Assembly (NCBI RefSeq): GCF_000974445.1
Contig: NZ_BBOJ01000010.1
Span: 186,001-250,000, forward strand
DNA: 64,000 nucleotides
From: Lentzea aerocolonigenes
GTDB lineage: Bacteria > Actinomycetota > Actinomycetes > Mycobacteriales > Pseudonocardiaceae
Direction of reading: 5' to 3'
A program made the position numbers and the translations under genes. Under the pieces are notes generated by a model, which saw only the letters and a list, made by a program, of their open reading frames with translations, did not search any database and was not told the DNA's origin. Of this stretch, positions 2,975-29,819 are shown piece after piece (within the stretch, counting starts at the first letter, position 1; each line of letters opens with the position of its first letter).

Positions 2975-2995
2975 GGTTGGCGGTTGGCGGTTGGC
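2975..2995. repeat. Three tandem copies of GGTTGGC
   Basis: Three perfect 7-base units in a row, upstream of the 587-residue gene that starts at 2838 on the minus strand. Too short to identify. It may be a simple-sequence tract or part of an operator. Confidence 0.6.
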
Positions 2996-3740: not shown

Positions 3741-4283
3741 ATGGTGATCATGGGCGATGGCGTACAGCGAGCGTGGAGCGAGGTAGCAACATTGGACCCG
3801 AACCGCGCGAAGTCTCGATTCGGCATCGCCTATGTTCGCGCCGTGTGCAGCCAAGCTGGGGTGGGTTTTCAGGAAACCAGCCTGGACGAGGACGTACTCG
3901 CGGTCGACGGAATCGTTGATCTCGAAATCGCACCCGCCCGAGTCCAAGTCAAATGCACCGGAAAGTTCCGAATCAAGGGCGGTGCAACTGCGACGTGGCA
4001 GGTGGAGGAGTCGTGGCGCCAACGCTGGATCCGCTCCAACGTCCCGGTGTACTTCGTCCTCGTGATCGTCGACCCTGACGATCAGCTCTCCTGGCTCCAC
4101 CACGACGACGAGGCAACGCTGCATCGTGCGGCGGCCTTCTGGACGCGGGTCGACACCCTTCCAGAGGGCCAGAACATCATGGTGCCGAAGGCACAGCGGT
4201 TCACCGCGGACACACTGCGGTTGTGGGACGCCGACGTCGAGGCTAGCTTCGGTCGGTCGAAGGGAGGCGGTGCAGTTGCCTGA
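3741..4283 (+). CDS. DUF4365-like (PD-(D/E)XK-type) protein
   Basis: 180 residues. The N-terminal half holds a restriction-endonuclease-like pattern: an acidic core (VDGIVDLEI) followed by VQVK, the D...(E/Q)xK arrangement seen in DUF4365 proteins, near residues 52-70. A Trp-rich middle (WRQRWIRSNVPVYFVLV) fits the same family. DUF4365 proteins are usually uncharacterised and common in defence islands; nuclease activity is inferred from fold only. The stop overlaps the start of the next gene, so the two are probably translationally coupled. The start could also be the ATG three codons later; neither has a strong ribosome binding site. Confidence 0.6.
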   Translation: MVIMGDGVQRAWSEVATLDPNRAKSRFGIAYVRAVCSQAGVGFQETSLDEDVLAVDGIVDLEIAPARVQVKCTGKFRIKGGATATWQVEESWRQRWIRSNVPVYFVLVIVDPDDQLSWLHHDDEATLHRAAAFWTRVDTLPEGQNIMVPKAQRFTADTLRLWDADVEASFGRSKGGGAVA

Positions 4284-11177: not shown

Positions 11178-13466
11178 CTACACCGGTAGGTACGGACTGG
11201 GCTTGCCGTGCCAGCTGATCCGCAGAGTGTCGCGGGCGCGGGTCGCAGCGACGAAGAGCAGCGAGCGTGCTTTGCGCTCTTCTCGGGCGAAGCGCTGTTG
11301 ATCTTCCTTCCGGTAACGCTCGATCAGGCCGGTACGAGGGATCACGCCGTCACGGACGCCGACAATCGCCAGCTTCTGGTACTCGAGTCCCTTGAACCGG
11401 TGCATCGTGCCGACGTGGACTTCACCTTCGCCCTTTGGCCCGTCCTTGGTGAGTTCGGCGCAACTGATCTCGGCTTGTGTCGTGAGGTAGTGCATGACTT
11501 GGCTGACCATGTCCCTGTCCGCGACACAGACAGCCACGTTGCCGCGGGGATCGCGCCGAACTCCGTTGTCTCCAGTGGAGATCTCTGTGCGCCAACTCGT
11601 CAAGGCCGCGGCGAGCTGGCGCAGTTCATCCTCCCAAGATTCGCAGGCCACGAGTTCGGGTGCCGGACCATGTAGCACCGAGCGGTAGCCATCGAGGGTG
11701 TCGACACCGTCGTCGAGGTTGTCATAGGAGACCTTCTGGGGGTCGACGACGCCAATGGCGCGGGCGAGGATCTCCCGTGTGGTGCGGTAGCTGAGGGTCA
11801 GTCGTGACGAACGGCCGCGGATGTTGATACCTACCGTGCCGAGGGTGACCTGGTGGTCGTAGATGCGCTGGTGGGTGTCACCGGCGATGAACATGTCGTT
11901 GGAGCTCTTCGGCACCATGGCACGCAACATCGTCCAGTGGGCGGCGCGGAGATCCTGGGCCTCGTCGACGACCACATGCCGGTAGCGGTGGCTGAGATAG
12001 CGCATGCCGGAACTGTCGTCGGGCTCCGTCTGGTCAGGACCGTCGGCAGACTCCTTGCCTTGCCGTGCCTCAATTTTCGCGGCCCGCTCCATCTCGAAGC
12101 GAGCCGCCCGCTCAGCGGCCTGGCCCCAGGTTTCGATACCTTCCTTGTCCAGGCGTGCGGTGAACTGCTCCAGCAGCTTCCAGATCTGGTTGCGTTCGGG
12201 GCGGGTCAGCGACCGGCCACGGCCCGCGCGACGGGCGTCGAAGTACGCCTTGCGGGTGTTAAGGGACTGACCGAGAACGACCTGGTCCCATTCCTCCAGC
12301 AGGAACTCGGCGTCCCAGCGTTGGTCGTCGACCTCGGCGAGCACCTGGCGGAGGACACCGAGCGCCACGGTGTCGTAGACACGTTGCTTGCCGGCACCGA
12401 CGCCCGCGTTCTCGCTGAGAACTCGCGCGGCGAGCTGGTCGATGTGGGTGATTTCGACGCGGGCCAACAACTCGGGTTCCAGCAGCGAGGCGAGGCGTGC
12501 ACGCAGGTCCGTGGTGAGATTCTTCGTGAACGTGGTCAGCAGGATCGGCTTGCCAGGGCCTGGCGGTAGCTGTTCAGCGAGATGCTTCACTCGATGCAGG
12601 GCGACGATGGTCTTGCCGGTGCCCGGTCCGCCGGAGACTCGTGCCGGTCCGTTGTAGTGGCGAGCGACGAGCTTGGCCTGGCTTGGGTGCAGGAAGACCT
12701 TCCAGGTGCGGAAGTCGCCCTCCTCGATCGCGGCCTTGAGGTCCTCGTCGACGGTGGTGACCGTGGTGCGAGCAAGGGCCGCGCCCAGGTTCTCGGCGTA
12801 GTCGTTGCCGAGTTCGACCTCGACCTGGGAGGTGATCTCCCGGCGAACCTCGTCCATGCTCATACCGGCAGCAAGCCCGTAGAGGACGTCCTTGGACAGC
12901 AGTGGCGCACCGGAGACCAGCTGGTCGAGCTCACCACTGTCGGTAACCGCGAGGGCAAGATCGATCAGTTGCTCGGTGACACCGAGGCCGCGGAGGTCCT
13001 CGGCCGTGATGCCAACGAGGAGCTGAGCAACGGATCGGCTCGGCTTGCTCGGCGTGGTGTGAGGAGTCTCGGGTTCCGGTTCGGAGGGCGTGAGCGTGAC
13101 ACCGGCGCGCTGCAACACACTTTCGCCGACCACGGAAAGATCCACGAACTCGATCTCGCCGGTGATCCGGTTGACCGCGACGGAAAGCTCCTCGTACACG
13201 TGCTTGCGGTGCCGCACGGCGATGACGAGCCAGTTCTCCTGTCCCCTGTCGTCGATGCCTGTCTTGGCAAGCAGCGCCCGGTAGGACTGGTCGATCTTGG
13301 CTCGGAAGACCCGGCGATCGCCCTTGAGTGGCTTGAGATCGAGTCCAGGATGATCAGGGTTGTCGCGGAAGAGATGGCAGAAGTCGTAGAACTTCGCCTT
13401 CACCGAGCGGTCGAGCTTGTACAGCTCCTGTTCGGCCTTCTGGTACAGGCTGAGCCGGGCGGTCAT
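11178..13466 (-). CDS. RelE-like domain fused to UvrD-type SF1 helicase
   Basis: 762 residues. Residues 1-95 resemble RelE/YafQ-type toxins (YQKAEQELYKLDRSVKAKFY, then LKGDRRVFRAKIDQSYR, then VIAVRHRKHVYEEL). A UvrD/Rep helicase follows: Walker A GGPGTGKT near residue 279, VVVDEAQDL near 502, SYRTTREIL, MHRFKGLEYQ and VAATRARDTL near the end. It translocates on DNA in an ATP-dependent manner by family. The RelE part may be an active RNase or only a docking fold. Its start overlaps the stop of the 2236-residue helicase (ATGA) and it is the last gene of the defence operon. It sits where class 1 DISARM usually has the phospholipase-D nuclease drmC. Confidence 0.82.
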   Translation of the reverse strand: MTARLSLYQKAEQELYKLDRSVKAKFYDFCHLFRDNPDHPGLDLKPLKGDRRVFRAKIDQSYRALLAKTGIDDRGQENWLVIAVRHRKHVYEELSVAVNRITGEIEFVDLSVVGESVLQRAGVTLTPSEPEPETPHTTPSKPSRSVAQLLVGITAEDLRGLGVTEQLIDLALAVTDSGELDQLVSGAPLLSKDVLYGLAAGMSMDEVRREITSQVEVELGNDYAENLGAALARTTVTTVDEDLKAAIEEGDFRTWKVFLHPSQAKLVARHYNGPARVSGGPGTGKTIVALHRVKHLAEQLPPGPGKPILLTTFTKNLTTDLRARLASLLEPELLARVEITHIDQLAARVLSENAGVGAGKQRVYDTVALGVLRQVLAEVDDQRWDAEFLLEEWDQVVLGQSLNTRKAYFDARRAGRGRSLTRPERNQIWKLLEQFTARLDKEGIETWGQAAERAARFEMERAAKIEARQGKESADGPDQTEPDDSSGMRYLSHRYRHVVVDEAQDLRAAHWTMLRAMVPKSSNDMFIAGDTHQRIYDHQVTLGTVGINIRGRSSRLTLSYRTTREILARAIGVVDPQKVSYDNLDDGVDTLDGYRSVLHGPAPELVACESWEDELRQLAAALTSWRTEISTGDNGVRRDPRGNVAVCVADRDMVSQVMHYLTTQAEISCAELTKDGPKGEGEVHVGTMHRFKGLEYQKLAIVGVRDGVIPRTGLIERYRKEDQQRFAREERKARSLLFVAATRARDTLRISWHGKPSPYLPV

Positions 13467-16400
13467 CGGGCGGCGCTACCTTCCGCGTCGGGGAGCAGTT
13501 CGAGAAGCGAGTCGAGGTGGTCAAGCCAGTCGTCCGCGGTGCGTGCCGTCCAGCCTGCCAGCGCGTACGCGTGATCGCGATTCCTCGCCTCCTCGTCGTG
13601 ATCGTCGTCGGACTTGGCGACGACGGCGACGCGGACACGGGACTCCGCCCAGGCGAAGTCCGCCTGCCAGCGCGCCTCGCCGAGCTCGTGTCCGAAGATG
13701 GGTGCTCGCTTGCCGTGTGTGGCAAGCAGTCTGGCAAGCCTGGTGAGCGCCGACTCCGGTTCGTCCTCTTCGAGGATCGGCAGGATCTCTTCGTCCCAGG
13801 ACGCATCTCGCAGCAGCTGCGCGATGTCCCGCTCGGCAGCTGACAGCGAGTCGTCCGGTTCCGCGACCTTCTGCGGCCTCTTGAGCTCGACGAGGGAATC
13901 CAGCTCGCCTATGCCACCGCAGACGGTGAGGATCTCGACGGGGAAAGCGGCAGCCCTGCTGGAGGCCAGCTGCACCCCGTCTCCACCCGTACGGGAGAGG
14001 AACTGCAGCAGGTTCGACCAGTAGAGCCAGGAACGCCAGCGGAGCTTGTGCTCGTCGGTCTCCAGCATTTCGTCGCTGTCGTCGACGATCGTGATGGCGC
14101 TCCAGCGCACCGTGTCGGCAGAAGCCTCGTCGCTGAAGTCGACGGCCAGGACGATGGGCAGCCCACGCAGGTCAGTGCCACGCAACACGTGAACCGGACC
14201 GTCGTTCCCAGCCGGTCCGACCTCGTGCGAGGCAAGCTCAGCCCGCAGTGCCGCCATTGCGCCCTCCCGATCGACCCCTTGAGCGATCGGGACCGCTGAG
14301 GTCGTCAGTCCTGCTACCAAAGCCTTGGCGCGACGTGCCCACAGTCCGGCGTCGGGGCGCCGCAGATACGCGAGCAGGGAGCGGATCGGGTCGACGAATA
14401 CGGCGTCGGCCAGGTGGGCGCGGTGTTCGCCCAGTCCTTCGTAGACGTCCTTGGCCCGTTCCTGGGCGAGCCCCTGGTACGGGGGCCACACCGGTTCGGC
14501 ACGATTGTTCCGGTTTTCGAACAGGTCGAGGTCGTCCCAGGTGATCTGGAAGACCACTCGCCCATCGGCGCGGAGCTGGTTGCGTTTGTCGCAATCGTCC
14601 GCGAGCCGGTTGTACTTGCGGGTTGCGTGGTAGCGATAGCCGTCCAGGTAGACGGTCACGCTCTGCTTCGGACCGTCGACCCGTTCAAATGTGAAGTCCG
14701 TACGCGTATAGTCCAAGTCCTGCTGGGTGGTCAATCGCCAGTTGATGACCCCGTTCGTGTCGGCGAACCGGAGGTAGCCGCTGGCCCGGCCGTCCTCGTC
14801 CAGCGTGGCCTTCTCGTCGGTGGTGACCCACCCTCGCAACGCGGCCAGGAAACGAGCCTCGAGGTCGGACTCCACCTGCCTGTCCAGGCCGATCTGCCCG
14901 GTGTGCGGGAGCTTTTCGACTGCCCACGCATCGACGAGTGTCTCGCCGTGGTTGTCCACGGTGCCCAGCAGGTCGCTGAGAATCTCCAGGGCCTCGCGGC
15001 GGGAGACGATGTCCTGATAGCGCTCGTCGGTGTACCGGTGCAGGCAACGGTGACAGGCAAGCCGGCCTTCGTCCTTGCACGGGCAGTCGAGCAGCGTCCG
15101 CCGCGCATCGGCCAGCGTGGCCCTGAACGCGACCGGATCGGTGAGCCTGTGCAGATAGCCCGTACCGCCGGGTAGCCGGTCGAAGAGAACGAGGAAGTGG
15201 CGCCGTTCTCCGGTCGCTGGGTCTGGCATGGACGCCACGGTGGTGTCCAGATGTTGTGGATCACCACCGAAGTGCTTGTCCACGCCCAGCCGCAGCGCCG
15301 CGCGGAACGAGTGGACCTTCTCCTCGATGAGCACGGTCGCCGCGGGCAGCAGTACCCGCAGCGCCTCGGTCCGCAGCTGGTGCGCGAGCAACACCGGCAC
15401 CTGAGGCACCGTGGCCGCGCGCTTTCCCCGCCGCAACGGGCACCAGGGCTGGTGGTGCTTGACCTTGGGGTTGCGCGCCGCGGACGAGTTCAGCGCATCC
15501 GTGTCGTGGTCGAAAACCGGTTTGCCGTCGGCCGTCGCCGCGCCGCAACCAGTGCAGACGTGGAACGGGCTCAACCGGATGGACTGCCCGGCGAGATCGT
15601 CCTCCTGGCTCCGGTCGAAGCGCGCGAGGCCTACGTTGACGCGCCGGACCATCGCGTTCCGGCAGAAATCAACACCGAAGGTCTGTGTTGCATGGCGCCA
15701 CGAGGTGTCCGGCTCGATCGCTTCGGTTGGGATGTCCACCGCGTCGATGACGGTGTAGAACCGCCGATCACGGTCATCCTTATCGTCACCGATCCGCGCA
15801 TCCTCACGCTTGCCGCGGGAGGTGACGACAGCAGGCTCCACCACCTGATGGAGACATGAGCCGTCATCGGCGATGCGGGGACTGCGGCAACGCGGGCACG
15901 GCGATCGGTCCTCGACCGCGTTCTCGGTGCGCACGAAACCGCAGTCCTGGCAGAACCTCCACTGCTGCCACTGGCGGTGCGCCGTGGTGCCGATCTCCAT
16001 ACCGGTGATCTCGTGTTTGTACCCGTTGACGTAGAAGGTGTTGCCGGGCGCGAGCTCCGACAGCGCGTACCGCCTAGGCCGGTCGTATGAAGAGAGCTTG
16101 GACGTGAACCGATCCTTCCCCGTGACCGGATCCACGCCCTCAGACCAGTACAGCGTGGCGTTCAACGTGGTGGCGGTGTCGATCAGGGCATAGTTCGGCA
16201 GCAGCCCGAGGTCGCACATGGCATTCTGCGCGGGCGTCATGCCGTGCTGGAGCAGGCGTTTGCCGACCGCCCGTCGTTCGGCGTCGAGCTCGGCCCTCTG
16301 GCCGGCCTGGTCAGGATCGGACTCGTGCAGCTCCGCGTGCGCTTCGTCGATCATCTTCAGACGGGAGCGCAGAATGTCCTCGCTGCGCCGCCACTCACGT

Positions 16401-19400
16401 TCAGCCTCCTCGGCCGCGCTTCGCAGACCACGTGTCGCATAGGCACGCAAGTCAGCCTTTGCCTCGTCGTTGACCCCGGTAGGGAAGAGCGCCAGAAACC
16501 CCTCGACAAGTTGCTCGCCCTGAGCGATGGCAACCTCGACCAGATCAACGAGATACCCCGACGGACCGAACAACGCGGGGGCCTGCAATGGCAAAGCACG
16601 CAACGGAACGCCGTCGCTCCGGAGCAGCCGGTCTCGAGCCGCGAGATCCAGCAGGTGCGCAAGGTACTGGCGGCGCAGGATTTCGACCGCGGAGAGGTGA
16701 CATCCGGGTGGCACGATCTGGCCGGCGATCATCTCCCTCGGCTGGTCCAGGAAGTACAGGTCCCGGCGACTGCGGTCGGGAATGGTGAGCAGGAAAGCGT
16801 TGCCGGTGCGGCGTCCAGCGCGGCCGACCTGCTGTGCGTAGTTGGCAGGGCGGCGCGGCAACGCTGCCAGCACAACGGCCGACAGGTCACCGATGTCGAT
16901 ACCCATCTCCAGCGTGGGCGTGCACGACAGCACGTTGGGATCCTTGAACCCGGTGCCATGCTTGAACGCTGCCTCAACCCGCTCGCGCTCAGGACGGCTG
17001 AGCATGCCGGTGTGCTCGGCGGTGATCACCTGGTACGTGCCCGCACGCCGGTACAAGCGCCGGTAGTAGTCGGCGCGGTAGTCGCGATCCCGCTGGTGTA
17101 CCCCCAGCTCCTCCGGCCGGTCTCCGGCGACAAGCCGACCGGTGCGGCAACGGTAGGAAGGGCAAGGCTGGCCGTGCCACTGCTCCAGCAGTGTCGGGTG
17201 CACCGTCTGCTCCCAGAAACACACCGGGCAACGAACAAACGCGGTATTCACTTCGTCGTCGGTCAACAACCGGATGTCGATGTTGCCCGGCTGAAGCCCG
17301 TAAATCCGCGCGGAGCTGTCGTTGGGCGTGCCGACCGACAACAAGCCGGCACCGGCAAGCTCGGGCAGCAGTCGGCTCCAGAACTCCGGGACCTGTTCAC
17401 GCGGCAGTTCCAGACACCGCTGCGCCCAACGCTCATACCAGGACAACCGGCCTGTGGCGAAGTCGAACTCGCTGCCAGCTTTGGGCTGCGCCAGCAGGAA
17501 CACCGGGGCGCCGATCCCCTTCGGGAACGCCCGCATACCTGGGGGCCGACCACCCCAGACGTGGTATCGGCTGGTGCCTGCCTCCCTCAGATATCCCTTC
17601 AACCAGTGGTGTTTGATCGCACCACGAGTCCGCAGCCGCTCCAGGAAGATGCGCAGAAACGCCAGATATCTCGAGTCCTCCTGAGCTTCGGGTACCACGC
17701 CACCTCGTTCGAGCCCGAGGTGGACAGTCTTGACGAGCTCCACGGCCGCAGCCGTGTCGGGGACGCGAACCTGTGCGGCCGCGGTGCGCGTCAGCTCCAG
17801 GGTCCGGCCATTGCGCGACCGGAAACCGAACTCCATCAACGCTTCGAAGGCAAGCCGCTCGCCGATCAGCCGCCAGGTCTTCAGATCCCCACCGCGCCCC
17901 TGACCGGAGAGCAGCCGGTTCACTCCCTTGTGATCGTGCAGGTCCGTCGGCACGACCGCGCTCAAGGTCTTCGGATCGGTGGTCGCTGCGACAACGTCGG
18001 CGATCAGATCGTTCAGTGCAGTCGGCCGATCCTCGGAGAGATGCTTCTTCAGCAGCGCGCGCAGTGAGAACGTGTACGAACGGCTGGCAACGAACCCTGC
18101 CCGGTGCGCAGCATCCTGCACCGAGTCGTTGAACATCAGCGTCTTGTCCTCGGCCAGCGCCTCGTCGAGCTCTCCCCCGGTGAAGAGCTGGGTCACCGAT
18201 GCCGCCGCGAGTGCGGCGGCACCAGTACCCAAGTACCGGATCGCATTGCGCTCGCCGCACGCCGGGCACCAGTCCTCGCCGGCCGCGGTGTTCGCCGTAT
18301 CGCCGATGTTGACCAGAACAAACGCCGAATCGCGCGCCGTCAGACGCGGTTCACCAGTCGACTGGTCGTAGTCCTTCTGCGGATCGGGCACCCTCAGCCG
18401 GCGCTCAGGCCCATCCAGCACCAGCAGAATCCCACCCGTGCCGTGGGCAAGTGTGCCTTTGTCCCTGCTGGAACGAGCCGAGACTGCCATCGGTGCGGCG
18501 CCGGAGCCTTCACGCGCCTCACGATCGGTCGCCGCGATCAGGTTGCGAACCCTGATCTTGTCCTGACTGGTGGAGGCCCGTCGGATCTTGTGAGTGTCGA
18601 ACTCCACGTCCTGGTCGTCGCTCTCCGGGGAGAACACCGCCCAGCCCGAACGCCCGCAGTCGCGGCAATAGACCGCAGGCAGGAACAGGTTCGCGGACTG
18701 GCCGGACGTCGCCACCGTCACCGGAGCCGTACGGCCATGGTTCGCGCCGTGCGCATCGTTAGTTCCGGCTGTGTCCCACCGGAACTCCGCCTTCGGCCAC
18801 GGCACCACACCACGCACGAGCCGGGACACCGAACGAGCCCACTGATGTACCTCGACATGCGCGAACGGACGCGGCCGTTCCGGAGTGGATTCGGGGTCAC
18901 GCGCGATGGAGAGCAGGGCTATGAACCGGGCGAGAGCACCGGCCGCCACCTCTGGCTGCCGGGTGATCGCCTGCACCCACGACTGTGCGCCAGTACGCCA
19001 CATCATGTCCAGAATCTCGGCGCCCGTCCGCACCTCGCCGTCCAACGAGCGCATGACGGCTGAGGTGAGCATGTGCTTCTTCAGGTTCGCGCCAAGCACG
19101 AACGGATCAAGGTCACGGGTGCCGGTAACCGCCTCGATCAGATCCGCCAACGCATCCTCGCCTGTGGCCGGATCGGGCAACGCGGCAAGCTGCTCGGGCA
19201 ACGGGAACGGGAGGACCGGATCGAAGTCGTGGACAGGGATGAACTCGTCCACCGACTGCCGGTTCTCGCCGATGACCGCGTCTGCGGTGAACTCTGTGCC
19301 GAAGACCTGTGTAGCGACGTCGAGCAGCGCGCTCGCGTCAGCACCTGCACCGGAGCCCAACGTCGCGGACGTGGCCACCGGGCAGATCCGGCCGAGTGGC

Positions 19401-20173: not shown

Positions 20174-23100
20174 GACTGCGGCACCTCCTGCTTCACCGGG
20201 TCCCACTCACCGCGCGCGACGGCGGCGTCGAGACGAGCCTGGAACACAGCGTGCGCTTCGCGCATCTCGGTTTCGCGATCAGCCTGATAAAAGTCAGGGA
20301 GATAGCCATCTGGTGGAGGTACGCTATCCACGGCGGCAAGATGCTCCTGGAGCCGCTTATAGTCTTCACTCTTTTGACCTTGCCCGAAGACTCGGCTGTC
20401 TCTCGCGATTCTCCTGCCCGTGGCATCAAACCACATTTCACTCTCTCGCTCATACAGCAAAGGAAAGCGGCCCCGAAAAATCGTGCACAAAACTTCCGCA
20501 GAAATTCCGAGACAAACTGCAACAAGAGCATCTAGCTCGACTAGCGCCGCACGCCGGGCGTGCTCAGACCTCAAGGGAGTGCAGAGGTTCCACTCACGCG
20601 CCGCTACTCCGATATTTTCGGCCGGCCGACTGGAGATCACCCAAGAATCATCGATCCACGAGGGATCAAATGCAGCATTCCACGCAGGCGCATAAGCTTC
20701 ACTCAGGCAATTGAGTCGAGCCGCTCGAAGCGTAATTGCGAAATAGAGCGGATGCCCAACCGCGGGAATAGGTATCTTCCGGGCGTCCCTGTCATGAAGA
20801 TTCTTCTTGCCCATCAAACGAATCAAGTACTCGATGGGAATAGAACTCCAGAACCCGACAATCGCAAGATCGAAAGCTACGCCACCGCGCGACATCGAAT
20901 ATATTCCGTCTACGTGAGCTGGCCCCGGTGGCAGAAACGCCACATTAAAGCAGCGCTCCATATCGAATGTCATCATTTTCCGCCAGGCGACACGCGGAAA
21001 ATCTACGTACGGCCTACCGTCCCAGGATTTCATCGCCGCGACGTACCGAGACCGTTCGACGACTCGCTTAAATGCCGTCGCTGGAACGAATTCCCCGGAA
21101 ATCGCAGACAAATCTACAGGCCTGCCGTGGCTGGCGAGATTTGGACTTTGTTTCGTAATTGGATTCGAGACTGAGATGTGAGGCCCACTGAGAATCACAT
21201 CATCCCACACTGAAGGCTCCGTATGGACCTTTTCAATCAATCGCCGCCGTTGCGATGTGCTCTCATTGAAACCAGAGCTGACTCGCTCGACGACACCGAG
21301 GCGGTGCGGATAGGCGCGAAGCGCGTCCATTGCGGCCGTTTCCAGGTCCGTAACTGGGTTGAACAGGACAGTATTCCCGGCCGGCTCGCCTACTTGCCCT
21401 GAAATCTGCTGCCACTCAAGCAGCAGTTCAGGCGTTACATGAATCACCCGCCGACGATGAGGACGGAGGTCAAAGTCTCGCGCCAACTTAATTCCAGGAA
21501 TATCCCCAGAACCATCATGCGTCAACGAACGTCCCACAACCGACGAGTGATAGAGGTTGCTCAGATGAAGAAAGGACACCTCCTGCATCGACCCGTAAAT
21601 ATGCACACCAAACTGAGTCGTGTGACCAACCGGCTCAGGAAAAGCCCAGTGTCCACCATTTACGAAGTTGCAGTGAACCCGCAGGCGCGACAGAGCGGAA
21701 GAGCGAATCCTCTCAAGTCCTCCGGTCGAGAGATGCGCTTCAGAGTGCACCATTCCCGAAGTCCCTATAGAGCACGAATTCTCCCACACCTTACACATGA
21801 AATTAAGGTAAAGATCAGGTTGATCGGTACCAAGTTCAGGATAGTTTACTTCGGATCCCACGAATCTTGAAATTCCCGCCGAGTTACTCACTCGAATTTG
21901 AAGGATCGCACGGCACTCGCTATCCGCCAGTACGGCAGCGCGCCGATCGGACGCAAGCGGATGCGAGGTGCCCCCGACGATAGCAAACCAAGGATCGAAT
22001 TCCGCCAACTCAGATGCCGCATCCCACTTCGGCTGCACCCACGGTGGGTTGCCTACCTGGAGGTCGAAGCCACCGCCCTGCGCGAAGACGAGTGCGAACT
22101 CCAGTTCCCAGTGTAGGAAGCCTTGCTGCGTCGCAATGTCCCGCACTGTGTGCAGCCACGGGAACCGTTGCTCGGGATTCGCCGGATCCATCCCCATGTA
22201 TGCCGGCAGGACCGCCTCGAAGTCCTTCAGCTCGTCCAGGTTGTTGAACTGACTGATGATCTCGTCTTCGGACACGTCCCCGGTGCCGATCATCGCTTCC
22301 AGGAAGTCCAGCCAGTCGTCGAGATCCTTCAACGGAATGGAATCCCGCAGAGGCACGGCCTTCGGCTTGGCCTTCGGCAACGACTTCTGCCTGATCGTCG
22401 CGGTCTCGATGATCAGTTCGTCATCAGGCCTCGGTTCCAGGTCAGCGAGCGAGGTCTGCTCAGGCTCCAGGGCGAACAACGCGAAGCGCTCCTCGACCCG
22501 AGGCCATGTTGCCGCCGCCGCTGGCGATTCACCAAGCAGCGCACTGACTGCCACGGAGTCCGCCGCGGCCGTTTCCTCGTACGCCCGATCCGTCCCGTCA
22601 AGCAACGCAGCCCTGTCAACCGGCCAGAACCAGAGCGCACACCAAGCGTCCATGACGGTCTTCAGCCGCCAGTAGGGCGTGTCCACGGCGTTGAAGAGGT
22701 CCTCGAAGACCTGCTCCTTGGACACAGCGTGCTCTGGCCGACGCAGGAAGCCGTACTCGGGATCGACGGGATCGGCGCCCCAGACGTCAATCCGACGCGC
22801 GATCGCCTGCTCGGAGATCTCCATTCGCTTAACGACGAGCGCCCACAGGAACTCCACCCGCCTCGCGGCGTCGCGGAGCCTGGTGAACTGGGATCGCGCC
22901 TCGGGCTGGGGCTTGCCGTCCTTGATCTTGGGTGCACCGGTCTTCGTGTTCAGGTGCGCCGTGCTGCGCTTCGGCCGCTGGAGGATCCCCTTCTTCCACG
23001 CGGCGAGTTTGGACGCCTCACTGGCGGCGAGTTCCTTAGCCTCGGTGGCCCCGGCGACCGCCGCCCAGCCAGGACTCGGCAGCAGGAACTGGTGCACCGC

Positions 23101-25437
23101 GTCCTGCGGCAGCAGCTGTTCGACGCCATCCTTCAAGAACGGCAACGGAGTCGGCGCCAACCCGCTCTTGGCCTTTAGCCACGCCTTCTCCGCTGAGGCG
23201 ACGTCCTCCCCCGAATAGACCGCGCGTCGTGCACCGATGAGCGAGTTGCCACGACGAAGGTGCAAGCCGAACCAGGGTGCCCGCATGCCGGGATGCATCG
23301 TGTTGAGCCACAACGACACTTCGGCTAGTTCGACGCCGGTCGCGTTCAGGTCCACGCCGTACGCGTTGTGCAACGCGATGTACGCCTTGGCCTTCTGCTT
23401 CTCCGTCAACGCATCCGCAGTCGGAATCGAGACGCCGAGCTCGTCCTGACGCCGCCGCAAATATTCGTCGGCGACCTGGTTGATCGCCTCGTTGAGGAAG
23501 GCCCCGGATCCGAGTGCGGGCTCGCAGATCTTGTACGTCAACAGCTCCGCGGCCCGCGTCTTGATCGTGTTCCCGTCGGCGTCTCGCTCCTGGTCGAGTC
23601 GGTGTTTCAGCGCGAGCTCGACCGTGACCTTGGTGAGCGACTCCGGCGTGTAGTACGAGGCAGAAGTCTCGCGGTCTCGCCCGGCGAGCCGGTAGACGAA
23701 GCTGCCTGCTGGATAACGCTTCGGCCCGCGCAGCCCCTTGCGGTTGTCGTGCTCGTTGTACTCGACGAGCGTGTTCGCCGGATAGTCCGTCTGCCGGTGT
23801 ACGGGGATGAGCCATGACCCCTTGTCCGGGTCACCTCCCTTGGCGACCTCGCACAGCTCTTCCTCGGCGATGATCCCGGTGTAGGACATCAGGCCCTCGT
23901 AGACGGCGCCGAGCTGGTTGATGCCCAAATTGCGGTACGAGATGAAGCCACCGCGGTCACCACGCCGGGTGGCCTTCTTCATCGTCAGCAGCCGCAGCAC
24001 CTCGTGCAGCGCGGAATTGCGCAGCCGCAGATCCAGAACGGCACCGCTGTCCTCAGCCTCACGAGGATCGACGACGCTGCGGCCGATCAGCCGGATCGCC
24101 TTCGGCTCGAACAGTTCACTGCGCAGCGGCTCGAACCGAAGGCCGCGGTCTTCGCTTCGACGTGCAGCCTTCGACTTCCGGGTCGCCTCGTCGTCGCCGG
24201 GCAGGTCGTCGTCGGACTCGGTGCCATACGGACGGTGCCCGTTGTTGACCTTGTGGAAGAGGACGTGCAGCGACTCGAAGAGGTGAAACCCGTTCCGGGC
24301 TTCCTCCTCGATGAGCTGCTCGTCGCGTTCGACCAGCTCACGCAGGCGGGCGACCGAGTAGCCGGCCTCGTAGGAGCCGTCATCCGCAGGAAGGATGCCC
24401 AGCTCAGGCCGAGCTTCGGCGTAGAGCAAGAACAGGATTCGATAGAGGTAGCGGAGCGACTCGCGGGTGAGTTCCTTGGCGAACGGGATCCTGATGTCCT
24501 CGACTTGCCGGGGTTCTACGCCGGCCGCGTCCAACCGTGCCAGCACCTCGTTGGCAATGATCTCGACCGAACGTTGGAGACCTTCACGGAGCTCCCCGGA
24601 AACTCCGACCGCGTTGTCGGTCGATGCTTTAAGGAGCGCGTCGATCTGTGGTCCCTTGCCGTCCTCCCCAGGAACCAGCATCTCGTGGCTGAAGAGGGCG
24701 GCGATGGTGGCCAGTTCGCCGAGTTGCTTGCGATCGTTGCGTTCCAGCGCCGCATCCAGATTCACGGCGAGGAAACGTCCCTCGGCCCATGCCTGTCGGT
24801 CGGCGAGCACGATGACCCCGCCGCACAGCAGGATCACGAAGCGGGGCGGCGCGCCGCCAGCCTCGTTCAGCTCACTCTGGAACAACCAGGTCGCAAGGGT
24901 CGGCCCCGTCTCGTACACCTCGCTGGCGCCCACCCGCAACGGATGCAGCAGCCGTCCAGGGCCGTCTGCGTCGAGAGCGGAGTCGTTGACCGCTGCCCAG
25001 CCGCATTCGATCGCAACGATCCCATCGCCGTGCCAGGCGGCCTCGACGACGTGTTCGCGTCCGGCCCGGTGGACCTTGAGCTGTGTGGGGCCTTCCGCGA
25101 AGCCGAGGGCATCGAGAACCCTCTGGTGCCAGGCTCCCAGCCGTTTGACCCACTCCGGATTGTTGTGGGTGCGCAGCCGAGCGGAGACCTCGTCGTCGTC
25201 CGCTGCGTCCTGCTCCGCACTTTCGGCGAAGAAGGTTCGGACTCGCTCGGACAGGTAGTCGGCGCGGAGATCACGCAGCTTCTGCCGCGGCGTCCTGCGC
25301 TTGTCGTGCTCGTCGGTCTCACGCAGCGACCAGGTGGCGAGGAGCCCTTTCTTGAGATCCACGCCGAGCTGATCGGCGAAGTAGTGCGCCGAGAAGTACT
25401 CGCCCCGGTTGGTGAAGGAGTCGAAGTCGGTGCTCAT
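20170..25437 (-). CDS. Large N6-adenine DNA methyltransferase (PglX/DrmMI-like)
   Basis: 1755 residues. The class I SAM-binding motif ICEPALGSGAFLNEAI lies near 640 and the catalytic NPPW near 1130, as in adenine methyltransferases of the Eco57I/PglX/DrmMI group. About 600 residues precede motif I, and an insertion separates it from NPPW. The part after NPPW (residues about 1140-1715) should hold the target-recognition domain. Its DNA (20290-22020) is visibly AT-richer, with codon use unlike the rest, suggesting that the specificity domain was exchanged. Expected role: methylating host sites so that the partner helicases and nuclease spare self DNA. It overlaps both neighbours by four bases. 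No PglZ gene is nearby, which argues against BREX. Confidence 0.88.
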   Translation of the reverse strand: MSTDFDSFTNRGEYFSAHYFADQLGVDLKKGLLATWSLRETDEHDKRRTPRQKLRDLRADYLSERVRTFFAESAEQDAADDDEVSARLRTHNNPEWVKRLGAWHQRVLDALGFAEGPTQLKVHRAGREHVVEAAWHGDGIVAIECGWAAVNDSALDADGPGRLLHPLRVGASEVYETGPTLATWLFQSELNEAGGAPPRFVILLCGGVIVLADRQAWAEGRFLAVNLDAALERNDRKQLGELATIAALFSHEMLVPGEDGKGPQIDALLKASTDNAVGVSGELREGLQRSVEIIANEVLARLDAAGVEPRQVEDIRIPFAKELTRESLRYLYRILFLLYAEARPELGILPADDGSYEAGYSVARLRELVERDEQLIEEEARNGFHLFESLHVLFHKVNNGHRPYGTESDDDLPGDDEATRKSKAARRSEDRGLRFEPLRSELFEPKAIRLIGRSVVDPREAEDSGAVLDLRLRNSALHEVLRLLTMKKATRRGDRGGFISYRNLGINQLGAVYEGLMSYTGIIAEEELCEVAKGGDPDKGSWLIPVHRQTDYPANTLVEYNEHDNRKGLRGPKRYPAGSFVYRLAGRDRETSASYYTPESLTKVTVELALKHRLDQERDADGNTIKTRAAELLTYKICEPALGSGAFLNEAINQVADEYLRRRQDELGVSIPTADALTEKQKAKAYIALHNAYGVDLNATGVELAEVSLWLNTMHPGMRAPWFGLHLRRGNSLIGARRAVYSGEDVASAEKAWLKAKSGLAPTPLPFLKDGVEQLLPQDAVHQFLLPSPGWAAVAGATEAKELAASEASKLAAWKKGILQRPKRSTAHLNTKTGAPKIKDGKPQPEARSQFTRLRDAARRVEFLWALVVKRMEISEQAIARRIDVWGADPVDPEYGFLRRPEHAVSKEQVFEDLFNAVDTPYWRLKTVMDAWCALWFWPVDRAALLDGTDRAYEETAAADSVAVSALLGESPAAAATWPRVEERFALFALEPEQTSLADLEPRPDDELIIETATIRQKSLPKAKPKAVPLRDSIPLKDLDDWLDFLEAMIGTGDVSEDEIISQFNNLDELKDFEAVLPAYMGMDPANPEQRFPWLHTVRDIATQQGFLHWELEFALVFAQGGGFDLQVGNPPWVQPKWDAASELAEFDPWFAIVGGTSHPLASDRRAAVLADSECRAILQIRVSNSAGISRFVGSEVNYPELGTDQPDLYLNFMCKVWENSCSIGTSGMVHSEAHLSTGGLERIRSSALSRLRVHCNFVNGGHWAFPEPVGHTTQFGVHIYGSMQEVSFLHLSNLYHSSVVGRSLTHDGSGDIPGIKLARDFDLRPHRRRVIHVTPELLLEWQQISGQVGEPAGNTVLFNPVTDLETAAMDALRAYPHRLGVVERVSSGFNESTSQRRRLIEKVHTEPSVWDDVILSGPHISVSNPITKQSPNLASHGRPVDLSAISGEFVPATAFKRVVERSRYVAAMKSWDGRPYVDFPRVAWRKMMTFDMERCFNVAFLPPGPAHVDGIYSMSRGGVAFDLAIVGFWSSIPIEYLIRLMGKKNLHDRDARKIPIPAVGHPLYFAITLRAARLNCLSEAYAPAWNAAFDPSWIDDSWVISSRPAENIGVAAREWNLCTPLRSEHARRAALVELDALVAVCLGISAEVLCTIFRGRFPLLYERESEMWFDATGRRIARDSRVFGQGQKSEDYKRLQEHLAAVDSVPPPDGYLPDFYQADRETEMREAHAVFQARLDAAVARGEWDPVKQEVPQS

Positions 25438-28400
25438 CGGGCGGTGCCTTCCACGTCGGACAGCGGCTCGAGGACGGCGAGCAAGCGCAGCATCGGCGCC
25501 CCGGAGGTCTTCAACGACGCGATGAGACCCTCGCGGCGACTGGCGGCGAGATTCACGCCTTGTTCTCCGGTCTTACCCGCTGCAAAAAGCACCGCCTGCT
25601 CCCGCCACTCCTGCACGCGCCTGCTGTAAGGCTCGAGAACCCGGTCGATGCGCTGCGCGTACTCGTTCTGCCGCTGCACGAGGTACCGCTCGGCCTCATC
25701 GATTGCTTGCGGGACAAGGTGTTGCAGTCCTTCCCTGTCCTGCAGTGTCGCGCGCCCAGGCATCCGTGGTCCCACTCCGCAGAGCTTCAGGAATTCGGCA
25801 TCCATGGGCACCACCCTGGGCGTGTCAGGCAGGCCGAGAACCGCCATCCACTCCACGACGGCTGGCCTGCCGAGGGCGTTGGAGTAGATTCCCTGAACGA
25901 GGAACACCGGGCCGGTGAGGCGCTCGTGGGGCAGGTAGGCCAGGACGAACGCCTCGTCATAGCGGATCGAAGCGAGAGCTTTGTCCGTCACCCAGTCCAG
26001 CACCGGGTGGACGTCCGACACGTAGCTGACGTTGGGCCACAGGGTTTTCGACGAGTCGCGTGCGGCTTTGAGCCGCTTTTCGGCCAGCTGCTTGGAGAAC
26101 GTCATGAGCAACCGGCCAGGCCTTGTCGAGGTCGGCAGAATGCCCTGCTCATCCAGATAGGACTTGGGCAGCGCCTTGAACCGGTACTGCAGATCGGCCG
26201 GTGGTTCGAAGGCGATGGTGCCATCCTCGTCACGACGCAACGAGAGATCGTCCTCCGGACGGGTCGGGCAGATCTGGCGCAGCGCTTCGTCGAAGTACGC
26301 GGCCGTGGACTCGAACACTGAGGGGACTGTTGCGATCGCGACCTCTGCGTGCTCGGGGTCCGCGCCCACGTTCCCCAGCATGGCCGCGAGGAAACCTGCG
26401 CTACCCTGCCGCGACTTTTTGATGGAAGTCTCGACGGTGCGGCCCGCGATCAGGTCCTTCGTCAGGCGGTCGTCCTCCTCCTTAGCCCGGTACAAGCCTG
26501 TGACGGCCTCGGCCGATCCCTCGATCTTGTGCGCCTCCTCCTCCCGCCGAAGGAGCTTGGCACCGACCAGCCGGTCATCGAGCGAGAGGACCTCGCCAGT
26601 CTCCTCATCCACACGCCACTGCACGTCGCTGGTGAGGACAAGAGCACGGAACTCGGGGGAACGTTCCTGCCCGTAGCGGTCGATGCGACCGTTGCGCTGC
26701 TCGATCCGGATCAACGACCAAGGCAGGTCGTAGTGAATGAGCTGGTTGCATTGCTGATGCAGGTTGACGCCTTCAGAGGCGACGTCGTTGGTGACCAGGA
26801 TCCGCACCGGATCGTCCCGCAGGCCGAACTTCTCCACGATCTTCTTCTGCTCGTCCTCGCCGGTGGCCTCGCTGTGGATCACCTGCACGACGCCGCCGTA
26901 GGACAGCCACGGCTTGTTCTTGTCATCGCTCTTGCCCGCGGGGAATCCCAACTGTGCGGGCACGACCTCAGCGAGCCATTTCAACGTCGCGATGCGCTCG
27001 GAGAAGATCACGACGCGGGTAGTCGATTTGGGACCGACTCCCAGTTCGTTGAGCACCTCGACGAGCTTCGTCAGCTTCGCGGAGTCGGCGTCCTCGATTC
27101 GAGAGGCGAGCCGGTCGAGGTCCAGCAGCGCCGACCGCTCGATCTCGCTCGGAGCCTTGGCGTTGTCCAATGTGCGCAGTCGCGTCCCAATGGTTTCCCG
27201 CAATGCCTTGTGGGAGGAGAGGAACGCCTTGAACAGCGTGTACGGGAACAGCTGGTGATCGCTGACCGCGCCTGCTGCACGATCGCGCGGGATCCACCGG
27301 GAAGCGAGTTCCTCGAAGATCGCTTCTTCCTTGCCCGTCGCCTTGGCTTCCACTGGCAAGGACGGTCCCCTGTCAGCCCACGCCCCCTTGAGAGAGTCAC
27401 GCACTTCCCGTGAAGTCTTCGTCCTCCTGATGTAGAGGTGCTCGAGGTTCTTCACGTCGTAGTTCGACGGGTCCGCGATCGCGGCCTCGTCGAGCAGCTT
27501 GATCAGCTCGGCGAAAGACTCGGCGTTGCCGTTGTGCGGTGTTGCGGATGCGAGGATCAGTGCATCAGTACGGCGGGCGAGCAGTTGGGCGAGCGCGTTG
27601 TTGCGGGTACCGCGGTTGACCAGGTTGTGCGACTCGTCGATGACGACAGCGTCCCAGTCGGTGTTACCGAGGTGATGCGCGTAGACATCGCTCTTGAGCG
27701 TGTCGACCGAGATGATGGCGCGTTTGAAGTAGGCAAACGGGTTACGGCCCGCCGGAATGTCCTGCTGGATCCGCTGGATGCCGGTCGAGTCGAGCCGCAC
27801 CAGCGGGATGGAGAAACGGGTCCACAGCTCGCGCTGGAACTGCTCCAGGACGTGTGCCGGCGTCACCACGAGGATCCGCTCACCACGGCCACGACGGATG
27901 AGCTCGGCTAGCAGAAGTCCGATCTCCAAGGTCTTCCCAAGGCCCACCACGTCCGCGATGAGGATGCGCGGCTGCGGGTTCTGCATCGACAGCGCAAGTT
28001 CGGCGGGACGCAGCTGATGGGTCTGCTTGTCCATGAGGAAGCTGTCGGCGAGTGCAAGACCGTGCTCCGTCTGAGGCAAGGCGGTCTTGCGGATCGCCGC
28101 CTCAAGGTAGAGACGCGCACGGCGATGGTTCGGAGAGTCGTCAGCCACCAGCCGGGTCTTCCGAGGGTCGAGCACTTCGATGCCGGCGGGCTTCTCGAGT
28201 TCCTCGTAGAAGACAGCGTCAGTTCCGCGGACAAACGGGGAGACGCCGGTTACCTCGAGCATCCAACCGTCATGCCGAGTGTTGCTGACCTTCTTCACCA
28301 GCCACTGCTCGTCACGAATCCGCACCTGGGCGCCAGGCGCGTACCTCGCCGCATGCTCAGGCATCTCCTGCGCCATTTCGACCTCAAGGGCGACGACGTC

Positions 28401-28448
28401 CTGGCCGTCTTCTCGCCCGACGTTCGCGGTCAAGCGCACTCCATTCAT
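25434..28448 (-). CDS. SNF2/HepA-type helicase (DrmD-like)
   Basis: 1004 residues. Motif I IADVVGLGKTLEIGLLL near 168, motif II VVIDESHNLVNRG near 270, motif III SATPHNG, then DVASEGVNLHQQ near 557 and RNGRIDRYGQ near 589 place it in the SNF2/HepA group of SF2 ATPases. Class 1 DISARM DrmD is of this type and is encoded beside the adenine methyltransferase, as here. The long C-terminal region (residues 650-1004) is helical and without a nuclease motif I recognise. It overlaps the methyltransferase start (ATGA) and follows the kinase gene by 30 bases. The ATG has only a weak ribosome binding site, so a GTG three codons in is possible. Confidence 0.85.
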   Translation of the reverse strand: MNGVRLTANVGREDGQDVVALEVEMAQEMPEHAARYAPGAQVRIRDEQWLVKKVSNTRHDGWMLEVTGVSPFVRGTDAVFYEELEKPAGIEVLDPRKTRLVADDSPNHRRARLYLEAAIRKTALPQTEHGLALADSFLMDKQTHQLRPAELALSMQNPQPRILIADVVGLGKTLEIGLLLAELIRRGRGERILVVTPAHVLEQFQRELWTRFSIPLVRLDSTGIQRIQQDIPAGRNPFAYFKRAIISVDTLKSDVYAHHLGNTDWDAVVIDESHNLVNRGTRNNALAQLLARRTDALILASATPHNGNAESFAELIKLLDEAAIADPSNYDVKNLEHLYIRRTKTSREVRDSLKGAWADRGPSLPVEAKATGKEEAIFEELASRWIPRDRAAGAVSDHQLFPYTLFKAFLSSHKALRETIGTRLRTLDNAKAPSEIERSALLDLDRLASRIEDADSAKLTKLVEVLNELGVGPKSTTRVVIFSERIATLKWLAEVVPAQLGFPAGKSDDKNKPWLSYGGVVQVIHSEATGEDEQKKIVEKFGLRDDPVRILVTNDVASEGVNLHQQCNQLIHYDLPWSLIRIEQRNGRIDRYGQERSPEFRALVLTSDVQWRVDEETGEVLSLDDRLVGAKLLRREEEAHKIEGSAEAVTGLYRAKEEDDRLTKDLIAGRTVETSIKKSRQGSAGFLAAMLGNVGADPEHAEVAIATVPSVFESTAAYFDEALRQICPTRPEDDLSLRRDEDGTIAFEPPADLQYRFKALPKSYLDEQGILPTSTRPGRLLMTFSKQLAEKRLKAARDSSKTLWPNVSYVSDVHPVLDWVTDKALASIRYDEAFVLAYLPHERLTGPVFLVQGIYSNALGRPAVVEWMAVLGLPDTPRVVPMDAEFLKLCGVGPRMPGRATLQDREGLQHLVPQAIDEAERYLVQRQNEYAQRIDRVLEPYSRRVQEWREQAVLFAAGKTGEQGVNLAASRREGLIASLKTSGAPMLRLLAVLEPLSDVEGTAR

Positions 28449-28478
28449 GAACTCGTTCGTCCAACCCTGCAGAACTGA

Positions 28479-29615
28479 CTACAACCCAGGTTGCGTTGCG
28501 TACTGTTTCCGCAGCTCCTCGGCCACTCGCTGCGAAGCAGGTACCCGTCCGCGGCGCATGTCAGCCTGAGGGGGTGCAGCGGCCTGGTCAACTTCACTGG
28601 ACACCTCGTTCTCTGAGGCTTCCGCGGACGCATCGGGAGGACCGTCAAGAGGGCTGTCCAGCGCCATTTCGCCGCTGAGGGGGACAGCCTGTGCTTCGAG
28701 CCGGTCCAGAAGAGAAGGCGGTGGAGGTGATACCGCTATCGCTGACGAACTGCCAACCGTGCGGTCGATCAATGCATGCCGGGCGCTCACTGGCGACAAA
28801 CCGTTGTCGGACATCAGCTTCGCGCATTGGGCTGTCACCGTCTCGAGAGAAGGACGATCAGTCGGATCGTGCGCGAGCATCGATGAGACCAGCGGAAGCA
28901 GAGCATCCGGGAGGCCGCCTAGATCAGGATGCTGGCGAGGGTCGGCGACCTGTCCGACGATGGCTTCCCACCGACCGCCTTCGTAGGGGTAGTGCCCTGT
29001 CGCCGCGTACAGCAGAACGGTTCCCAGTCCATACACATCTGCGGCTGGCGTGACCTGCGGGCGCCCCATCGCCTGCTCCGGTGGCATGCAGCGCACTGTG
29101 CCGATGATCATTCCGCTGTGTGAGAGCGTGTCCTTCGCCGCGTCCAGGAATGCACCGAGACCGAAGTCGATCAGGATCGGACCGTAGTCGCCCATGATCA
29201 CGTTCTGTGGCTTGAGGTCTCGGTGCAAGAGCCCTGTGGCATGTACAGCTGCCAAACCTTCGGCCAGTAGCGCACCAAGACTTGCGACGAGCGGCGCCGG
29301 CAACGGGCCATGCGCTTCGATGTGGACGAACAGCGTGCTCCCTGGCACGTACTCCATCGCCAGCCAGGGACGATCAGCGTAGGGATCCGCGTCGAGGAAC
29401 CTCGCAACCCTGTTCGTCCCGACGACGGTCCGGGCGATCAAGGCTTCCTTCTCGAACCGCGCGCGGGTGACCGGATCCAGCCGATCGCTGCGGATCAGCT
29501 TCACCGCGACGGGATCGCCAGCGGGCGAGTAGGCAAGGTACACCTCGCCCATGCCTCCGGAGCCAAGCTCGCGCTCCACTACGTAGCGGCCGATCAGCGC
29601 GGGCATATCACTCAT
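28479..29615 (-). CDS. Hanks-type Ser/Thr protein kinase, cytosolic
   Basis: 378 residues. The kinase domain spans about 1-270 with all key motifs: GSGGMGEVY (P-loop), VAVK (ATP lysine), HRDLKPQN (catalytic loop), DFG, and PPE in the activation segment. The C-terminal 100 residues are Pro/Ser/Glu-rich and basic at the end. There is no membrane segment or PASTA domain, unlike PknB-type receptors. It is the first gene of the helicase-methyltransferase operon, 30 bases before the SNF2 gene. Kinases accompany some defence systems (for example PglW in Pgl/BREX), so it may regulate or trigger this one; that link is inferred from position only. Confidence 0.85.
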   Translation of the reverse strand: MSDMPALIGRYVVERELGSGGMGEVYLAYSPAGDPVAVKLIRSDRLDPVTRARFEKEALIARTVVGTNRVARFLDADPYADRPWLAMEYVPGSTLFVHIEAHGPLPAPLVASLGALLAEGLAAVHATGLLHRDLKPQNVIMGDYGPILIDFGLGAFLDAAKDTLSHSGMIIGTVRCMPPEQAMGRPQVTPAADVYGLGTVLLYAATGHYPYEGGRWEAIVGQVADPRQHPDLGGLPDALLPLVSSMLAHDPTDRPSLETVTAQCAKLMSDNGLSPVSARHALIDRTVGSSSAIAVSPPPPSLLDRLEAQAVPLSGEMALDSPLDGPPDASAEASENEVSSEVDQAAAPPQADMRRGRVPASQRVAEELRKQYATQPGL

Positions 29616-29635
29616 GGCCTACCTGTCGCCCTCTC

Positions 29636-29673
29636 GTAACCAAGCGTTACCGCATGCACTCTCGCTGCGAGAG
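29636..29673. promoter_or_regulatory. Two inverted repeats upstream of kinase gene
   Basis: GTAAC-N5-GTTAC at 29636-29650 lies 20 bases upstream of the kinase ATG. CTCTCG-N3-CGAGAG at 29659-29673 lies just beyond it. Both are perfect within their arms and sit where an operator for the defence operon would be expected. No regulator is assigned. Confidence 0.4.
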
Positions 29674-29819
29674 CCACACCCTACTCGGTTGAATCACGAA
29701 GGAGCAGCACGGAAGCAAGCGCAAAACTGGCCAAAAGTGTGACACCAAGCCTATCGCAATACATCAATTCTCGCAGTGCTCACATGCGCTTACACCTGCG
29801 CCGTGGCACCTCAAGAATC

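What the first reader, a model, noticed from the sequence alone, without database searches (positions are those of the whole stretch)
11178..29615. DISARM-related five-gene operon with a non-standard gene set
Seen: kinase, SNF2-like helicase, large adenine methyltransferase, DEAD-type helicase with DUF1998, and a UvrD-type helicase, all on one strand, the last four linked by 4-base overlaps. Known: class 1 DISARM has drmD (SNF2), drmMI (adenine methyltransferase), drmA (helicase), drmB (DUF1998) and drmC (phospholipase D). Here the order is kept, but drmA and drmB are one protein, drmC is absent, a RelE-UvrD protein takes its place, and a Ser/Thr kinase leads the operon. Inference: a variant or new type of methylation-linked phage defence, intermediate between DISARM and Druantia.
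Basis: partly seen in the sequence, partly recalled or inferred. Interest (0 to 1): 0.82.

Follow-up and report, generated by a model that had tools for sequence, protein, structure and literature searches.

The report
Kinase-led ARMADA phage-defence operon
These five bacterial genes are a recently described kind of phage-defence operon (ARMADA type II) with an extra protein kinase at its head, which a large branch of actinobacterial relatives also carries and which may act as a control switch.

Summary
In detail: five minus-strand genes at 11178-29615 (Ser/Thr kinase, SNF2-type helicase, adenine methyltransferase, DEAD+MZB helicase, RelE-UvrD protein), the last four joined by 4-base overlaps. 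Those four are ARMADA type II (ArmA-B-C-D; Bell et al. 2025 preprint, PMC12458937), not a DISARM variant: window ArmC matches an E. coli ARMADA-type ArmC over 1995 aa (619 bits) but that operon's DruE neighbour only over 213 aa (118 bits). The preprint's main text has no 'kinase'. The kinase is the new part. It lies directly upstream of ArmA in 67 of 75 evaluable named loci (a sample ranked by similarity to this branch) and in 5 of 18 same-family loci. On an ArmA tree of 92 rows its presence needs one change. DNA similarity to two other genera runs from 74 bp before the kinase to the end of ArmD and stops, broken only in the C-terminal part of the methyltransferase. Catalytic residues are intact in 73 of 73 aligned kinases, and 64 of 73 end in one short conserved motif. 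Best reading: a tethered regulator of ARMADA; target and direction are inferred. New variant of a known kind.

The parts
29616..29689 (-). upstream block that travels with the operon, presumed promoter/leader
   Evidence: DNA similarity to L022 and L023 (other genera) ends at 29689 and 29688; promoter function not tested
28479..29615 (-). Ser/Thr protein kinase, 378 aa, no Pfam domain besides the kinase domain (proposed name ArmK)
   Evidence: Pkinase 4.9e-35; K39, HRD 131-133, N138, D150, G152 in 73 of 73 aligned ARMADA kinases
28482..28541 (-). conserved C-terminal tail of the kinase (about residues 359-378), motif LR..YA....L-COOH
   Evidence: predicted helix 360-374, block pLDDT 48-61, after a linker of pLDDT below 50
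25434..28448 (-). ArmA: SNF2/RapA-type helicase (DrmD/BrxHII-like)
   Evidence: 33% to E. coli ArmA over 973 columns; GLGKT 169, DESH 271
20170..25437 (-). ArmB: PglX-like adenine methyltransferase
   Evidence: ALGSGAF 641, GNPPW 1129; 34% to E. coli ArmB
20293..22034 (-). replaced C-terminal part of ArmB, presumably the target-recognition region
   Evidence: no DNA match to L022/L023 here; aa 1101-1700 34-52% identical against 76-96% in the other bins, GC3 0.52-0.63; its role as specificity region is inferred
13463..20206 (-). ArmC: YprA-like helicase with fused MZB domain; likely start GTG at 20173
   Evidence: 29% over 1995 columns to E. coli ArmC; seven CxxC pairs, GTGSGKT 115, VDEFH 237
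14507..14869 (-). candidate Vsr/PD-(D/E)xK nuclease part of ArmC
   Evidence: SELE-type E, PDF/TDF D, LDG D1855, H and KR shared with E. coli ArmC and other relatives in an 8-row alignment (L031 and L034 have TDG); no support from Pfam, PDB sequence or Foldseek searches
11178..13466 (-). ArmD: RelE-like N-terminus plus UvrD/GajB-like helicase
   Evidence: UvrD 1.3e-24; RelE-like profile match; GTGKT 282, DEAQ 501
13194..13466 (-). RelE-like part of ArmD (about residues 1-91)

Best explanation
An ARMADA type II phage-defence operon with a fifth component, a kinase, typical of a large actinobacterial branch. Inferred working: ArmB methylates adenines at sites set by its exchangeable specificity region and so marks host DNA as self; ArmA, ArmC and ArmD act on unmarked incoming DNA, the helicases moving along it and the nuclease part of ArmC cutting it; the kinase is held to the Arm complex by its C-terminal helix and gates it by phosphorylating one of its parts, as is proposed for PglW in the Streptomyces Pgl system. 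Shown here: similarity that places the four genes in ARMADA II, the kinase as part of the exchanged unit, intact catalytic residues, the conserved tail. From the preprint: all four Arm genes are needed in E. coli and the cells stay intact. Inferred only: methyl mark as self signal, docking, target of the kinase, and whether it switches the system on or holds it back.
For: ARMADA II: order and domains as in PMC12458937; similarity to the E. coli operon for all four proteins; window ArmC and E. coli ArmC score alike on the DruE3 profile (307 and 337 bits) where the true DruE scores 2180. Kinase as a component: directly upstream in 67 of 75 named loci and 5 of 18 family loci; one change on the ArmA tree; ARMADA kinases cluster (2 changes for 73 of 105 rows, shuffled mean 27.6); exact exchange unit; the five best kinase hits in 200 family genomes are the five ARMADA ones of the main lineage; plasmid copy. 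Catalytic residues in 73 of 73. Tail: strict form 56 of 73, looser form 64 of 73, 0 of 26 own-genome paralogues, 0 of 25 nearest non-ARMADA kinases, 55 of 14600 shuffled tails. Regulatory precedent: PglW kinase activity is essential in Pgl (PMC4365076, passages).
Against: ARMADA II works in E. coli without a kinase and a branch of 19 distinct loci here lacks it, so it is not needed in general. No sensor domain was found in the kinase. No binding partner or substrate was tested. Several outgroup kinases end in a loosely similar stretch (ELRSALAWY), so the tail may be inherited rather than made for ARMADA. Two tail types exist. The nuclease part of ArmC was not confirmed by independent tools. 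A first crude motif script called only 40 of 67 kinases complete; the alignment check replaced it.
Confidence: 0.55

Rival explanations
1. The kinase is an effector of its own: on infection it phosphorylates host proteins and shuts the cell down as a backup when ARMADA fails.
For: Its best PADLOC profiles are PD-T4-6 (183 bits) and mad6 (178 bits), kinases of defence systems. The RelE-like part of ArmD would also fit a backup toxin.
Against: Kinase profiles are promiscuous: 33 PADLOC families match it. A tail conserved at the C-terminus and the tight tie to ArmA favour a role within the complex. ARMADA in E. coli is non-abortive, but there it has no kinase.
Confidence: 0.2
2. The kinase controls expression of the operon only, through a separate repressor, like CapK with CapS.
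For: Gene position at the head of the operon; precedent for a kinase controlling an immune operon (PMC13373217, abstract and outline).
Against: CapK is an anti-sigma-type kinase with CapS beside it (abstract); between the kinase and ArmA here are 30 bases and no repressor gene, and the exchanged unit holds no other gene.
Confidence: 0.15
3. The kinase is a passenger without a part in defence.
For: A kinase-less ARMADA branch exists (20 rows, 19 distinct loci).
Against: Retention with intact catalytic residues in 73 of 73 kinases over many genera and one change on the tree.
Confidence: 0.05
4. The four genes are a DISARM class 1 or a Druantia variant rather than ARMADA.
For: DrmD, DrmMI and DruE profiles match ArmA, ArmB and ArmC.
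Against: No DrmB or DrmC gene within the operon, the MZB domain is fused; DISARM_DrmD 281 bits against a cut-off of 610; DruE3 307 bits where a true DruE gives 2180.
Confidence: 0.03

Closest known systems
ARMADA type II (Bell et al. 2025, bioRxiv, PMC12458937)
   Same: Gene order and domains ArmA-B-C-D; sequence similarity for all four; fused MZB domain; RelE-UvrD protein
   Different: A kinase leads the operon here; the E. coli operon has none. Kinase not mentioned in the preprint's main text
DISARM class 1
   Same: SNF2-type helicase and PglX-like methyltransferase in the same order, YprA-like helicase
   Different: Separate DrmB and phospholipase-D DrmC absent; helicase and MZB part are one protein; RelE-UvrD protein and kinase added
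Druantia
   Same: DruE is the related YprA-like helicase
   Different: Scores seven-fold lower than a true DruE on its profile; no DruH here; methyltransferase, SNF2 and UvrD genes are not part of type III (array)
Pgl / BREX type 2
   Same: Kinase with a PglX-type methyltransferase and a helicase in Streptomyces relatives
   Different: PglW is a 1400-1600-aa multidomain protein (passage in PMC12839542); no PglZ-type gene in the five-gene unit; BREX_PglW model only 41 bits against 990
MADS (methylation-associated defence system)
   Same: Kinase and methyltransferase in one defence locus (recalled)
   Different: MAD6 model 118 bits against a cut-off of 460; other genes differ (recalled)

Membership tests
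ARMADA type II | Strict order BrxHII-like helicase, PglX-like methyltransferase, YprA-like helicase, RelE-GajB-like helicase | tested here: met
   definition read
ARMADA type II | YprA-like helicase closer to ARMADA than to Druantia or DISARM | tested here: met
   619 bits to E. coli ArmC, 118 to DruE; DrmA profile 54 bits; no full YprA tree was built
ARMADA type II | Motifs needed in E. coli (Walker motifs of ArmA, ArmC, ArmD; NPPW and GxG of ArmB) | tested here: met
   motifs found by script
ARMADA type II | RelE-like domain at the N-terminus of the UvrD-type helicase | tested here: met
   profile match to 2khe E 5.1e-4 and 1wmi 0.015; Pfam below cut-off
ARMADA type II | Active Vsr-type nuclease at the ArmC C-terminus | tested here: inconclusive
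   candidate residues shared with E. coli ArmC; no support in Pfam, PDB sequences or Foldseek on a model of mean pLDDT 61
ARMADA type II | BrxA-like insertion after RecA1 of ArmC | not tested
   -
ARMADA type II | Protection against phages | not testable with these tools
   -
DISARM class 1 | Separate drmB and phospholipase-D drmC | tested here: not met
   no such genes among the five
DISARM class 1 | DrmD at its curated NCBIfam cut-off | tested here: not met
   280.6 bits against 610
Druantia | DruE-type helicase scoring like a true DruE | tested here: not met
   307 bits against 2180 for the E. coli DruE
Pgl / BREX type 2 | PglW-type kinase at its cut-off | tested here: not met
   41.3 bits against 990
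MADS | MAD6 kinase at its cut-off | tested here: not met
   117.8 bits against 460

The most novel reading that the evidence does not exclude
In one actinobacterial branch ARMADA is a kinase-licensed DNA-attack machine: a small Hanks-type kinase is tethered to the Arm complex by a conserved C-terminal helix and phosphorylates an Arm subunit to release the attack on infection. Two kinase lineages with two different tails (LR..YA....L/F and RR.DYGG endings) are tied to two ArmA clades, so tail and complex would fit like lock and key.
Probability: 0.35. Interest if true: 0.7.

Novelty: new variant of a known kind. Interest (0 to 1): 0.5.

Why it matters
How methylation-linked systems built around large helicases (Pgl/BREX, DISARM, ARMADA) are kept quiet until infection is open, and a kinase signal was proposed for Pgl (PMC4365076). 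A 378-aa kinase with a short tail, beside a four-gene core that works without a kinase in E. coli, makes that question directly testable by removing or crippling one small protein. The sharply bounded five-gene unit with one replaced stretch in the methyltransferase also shows how such operons move and probably change target.

Tried and rejected
A three-gene form (kinase, ArmA, ArmB) was suspected because 21 kinase-bearing loci showed no ArmC within the flank held. Rejected: 18 of those 21, plus two loci cut shortly after ArmB, were searched and 20 of 20 genomes hold an ArmC homologue (L072, L083 and L089 not searched). In 15 fetched on the same contig it lies about 5-16 kb beyond ArmB. I therefore do not argue from that form which subunit the tail binds.

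Hma as an earlier description of this operon was considered because HmaA scores 156 bits; rejected, its methylase is m5C (PMC8565338, passages). A Vsr fold for the end of ArmC was sought by AlphaFold2 with Foldseek, Pfam and PDB sequence search: no match at E<=0.001; TnsA came at E 0.2. The BREX survey PMC12839542 was seen by passages only: 'armada', 'disarm' and 'uvrd' 0 occurrences.

Limits of the counts. L030/L101 and L013/L113 are the same loci reached twice. Of 19 other family genomes with ArmA, 18 neighbourhoods were fetched (one lay on a short contig), and L039 shows only part of an ArmA. L027 and L028 have an unrelated kinase gene on the opposite strand upstream of ArmA; I count them as without. 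From the ArmA tree I dropped L013, L039, L084, L091, L092, L100 and L110, and set L023, L024 and L108 to tail type 1 by eye; it is a quick tree with long-branch warnings. One search stopped before its motif count; one search made it (0 of 26, 3 of them cut by the locus end).
Full report
WHAT IS THERE. Five minus-strand genes occupy 11178-29615 on contig C46 of a 10.7 Mb genome. In order of transcription: Ser/Thr kinase (378 aa), SNF2-type helicase (1004 aa), adenine methyltransferase (1755 aa), DEAD helicase with MZB domain (2247 aa, or 2236 from the likelier start), UvrD-type helicase with a RelE-like N-terminus (762 aa). The last four are joined by 4-base overlaps if ArmC starts at the GTG at 20173, as a relative suggests.

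WHAT IT IS. Bell et al. 2025 (PMC12458937; I saw the abstract, sections 7, 8 and 12, and passages found by term) describe ARMADA type II with this four-gene order, a RelE part fused to the GajB-like helicase and the DUF1998 module fused to the YprA-like helicase. As control I took an E. coli plasmid stretch with Zorya II genes, DruH (2539 bits on its profile), DruE (2180 bits) and then SNF2, methyltransferase, DEAD and ATP-dependent helicase genes, the array the preprint describes. Window against it: ArmA 33% (448 bits), ArmB 34% (372), ArmC 29% over 1995 columns (619), the available part of ArmD 25% (60); window ArmC against that DruE only 118 bits over 213 columns. On the DruE3 profile window ArmC and E. 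coli ArmC score 307 and 337 bits. The motifs that the preprint tested are present. So 'intermediate between DISARM and Druantia' is right and already in print under the name ARMADA.

THE KINASE BELONGS TO IT. ArmA was found in 20 of 200 family genomes, the window's own included. In 18 neighbourhoods fetched, 5 have a kinase directly upstream of ArmA on the same strand. Of 79 named loci, 75 have enough upstream sequence: 67 with the kinase, 8 without. This sample is ranked by similarity and leans to the window's branch. On an ArmA tree of 92 rows (72 with, 20 without; one locus twice) presence or absence needs one change (SH-aLRT 100), and the two tail types are one clade each. In a kinase tree of 105 rows, with 26 paralogues from the window's genome, the 73 ARMADA kinases need two changes (shuffled mean 27.6): a main lineage and a second of six rows. 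In a kinase search of the 200 family genomes the five best hits are the kinases of the five genomes with main-lineage kinase-led ARMADA; the sixth kinase-led genome (G019, second lineage) did not reach the cut-off. The five-gene set also lies on a mobilizable Streptomyces plasmid. Catalytic residues K39, HRD, N138, D150 and G152 are present in 73 of 73 aligned ARMADA kinases.

UNIT OF EXCHANGE. DNA similarity between the window and two other genera (84-88% identity) runs from 29689/29688 to 11176/11185, from 74 bp before the kinase start to the end of ArmD; a DNA search of the fetched flanks gave only the ArmD end. The one break, 20292-22035, is in the C-terminal part of ArmB, where identity to these two relatives falls to 34-52% (77-96% before, 76-78% after) and GC3 to 0.52-0.63 (0.74-0.89 before). 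Its place after the NPPW motif makes it probably the target-recognition region, replaced from a lower-GC source (inference).

THE TAIL. After the kinase domain come a linker of low predicted confidence and a short C-terminal helix (residues 360-374, block pLDDT 48-61, six-row AlphaFold2 model). [LIV]R..YA occurs in the last 40 residues of 56 of 73 ARMADA kinases, and in 47 of the 56 the chain ends exactly five residues later; 55 of 14600 shuffled tails have it. A looser form is found in 64 of 73; among the 67 named ones 61 are of this type, five have the second type (RR.DYGG-like end), one neither. The tail pattern turned up in one other ORF of 17967 in the loci then held, a 52-aa stub before ArmA at a contig edge (L100), in 0 of 26 own-genome paralogues, and in 0 of the 25 nearest non-ARMADA kinases. 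Against: about half of those 25 end in a loosely similar stretch such as ELRSALAWY.

HOW IT MAY WORK. From the preprint's passages: all four arm genes are needed and infected cells stay intact. Inferred: ArmB marks self DNA, ArmA, ArmC and ArmD attack unmarked DNA, the kinase gates that attack. The nearest precedent is PglW of Streptomyces Pgl, whose kinase activity is essential and proposed to signal by phosphorylation (PMC4365076, passages). Since the E. coli operon works without a kinase, the kinase is an added control in this branch rather than a catalytic need. Target and direction are unknown.

PRIOR ART ON THE KINASE. 'Kinase' has 0 occurrences in the main text of the ARMADA preprint. 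A search for armada, antiviral defense array, kinase and phage from 2024 on listed 14 papers, of which three concern ARMADA: this preprint; PMC12904381 (one ARMADA mention, its three kinase mentions concern phage kinases or references); and PMC13192584 (0 'kinase'). Further searches gave no ARMADA kinase in their listings.

VERDICT. Observation confirmed; the four-gene core is known; the kinase-led form with its tail is a new variant as far as I could search. Interest 0.5.

Noticed in passing
L154-L168 (between ArmB and ArmC in 15 genomes): In a part of the kinase-led branch ArmB and ArmC are separated by about 5-16 kb of variable genes, a cargo slot inside the operon. In L168 these match PADLOC HEC-01A/B (651 and 289 bits) and NsnA/B/C (431, 398 and 316 bits); other slots were only looked at by eye.
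   Followed up: partly
L116 4641-9882; L032 280-2013; L103 8247-9962: Kinase-less loci have DrmB-like genes upstream of ArmA (3 of 3 tested, 94-225 bits); L116 also has a helicase gene before it and a Vsr gene on the other strand (63 bits). L034, L035, L037 and L111 look alike at the N-terminus. Possible composite DISARM-ARMADA loci.
   Followed up: partly
window 5768-8568; L054 5356-8219; L097 5440-6871: A GmrSD_N gene and a CBS-domain gene lie beyond ArmD here; the pair is 87% identical in DNA just upstream of the kinase in L054, and part of it 66% in L097. A DUF262 gene also lies upstream of the kinase on the S. cellulosae plasmid.
   Followed up: partly
window 8734-10563: Large serine recombinase (Resolvase, Recombinase, Zn_ribbon domains) next to the ArmD end; not part of the unit shared with L022/L023.
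   Followed up: no
window 1075-3060; L168 4953-6725: A 661-aa ORF without Pfam or PADLOC match whose inner start (MQDPSDSMEIAEPEE) closely resembles the start of an ORF in the cargo slot of L168 (by eye).
   Followed up: no
L050, L054, L082, L101: ArmB is read as two ORFs in these loci; sequencing error, decay or phase variation cannot be told apart.
   Followed up: no
L045 4540-8276; L058 3594-8326: Two further, larger kinase genes stand upstream of the ARMADA kinase; they fall outside the ARMADA kinase lineages.
   Followed up: partly
window 3741-4283 and 44256-46493: A DUF4365 gene (PADLOC PDC-M02A, 62 bits) and an HTH/NB-ARC/TPR gene elsewhere in the window.
   Followed up: no
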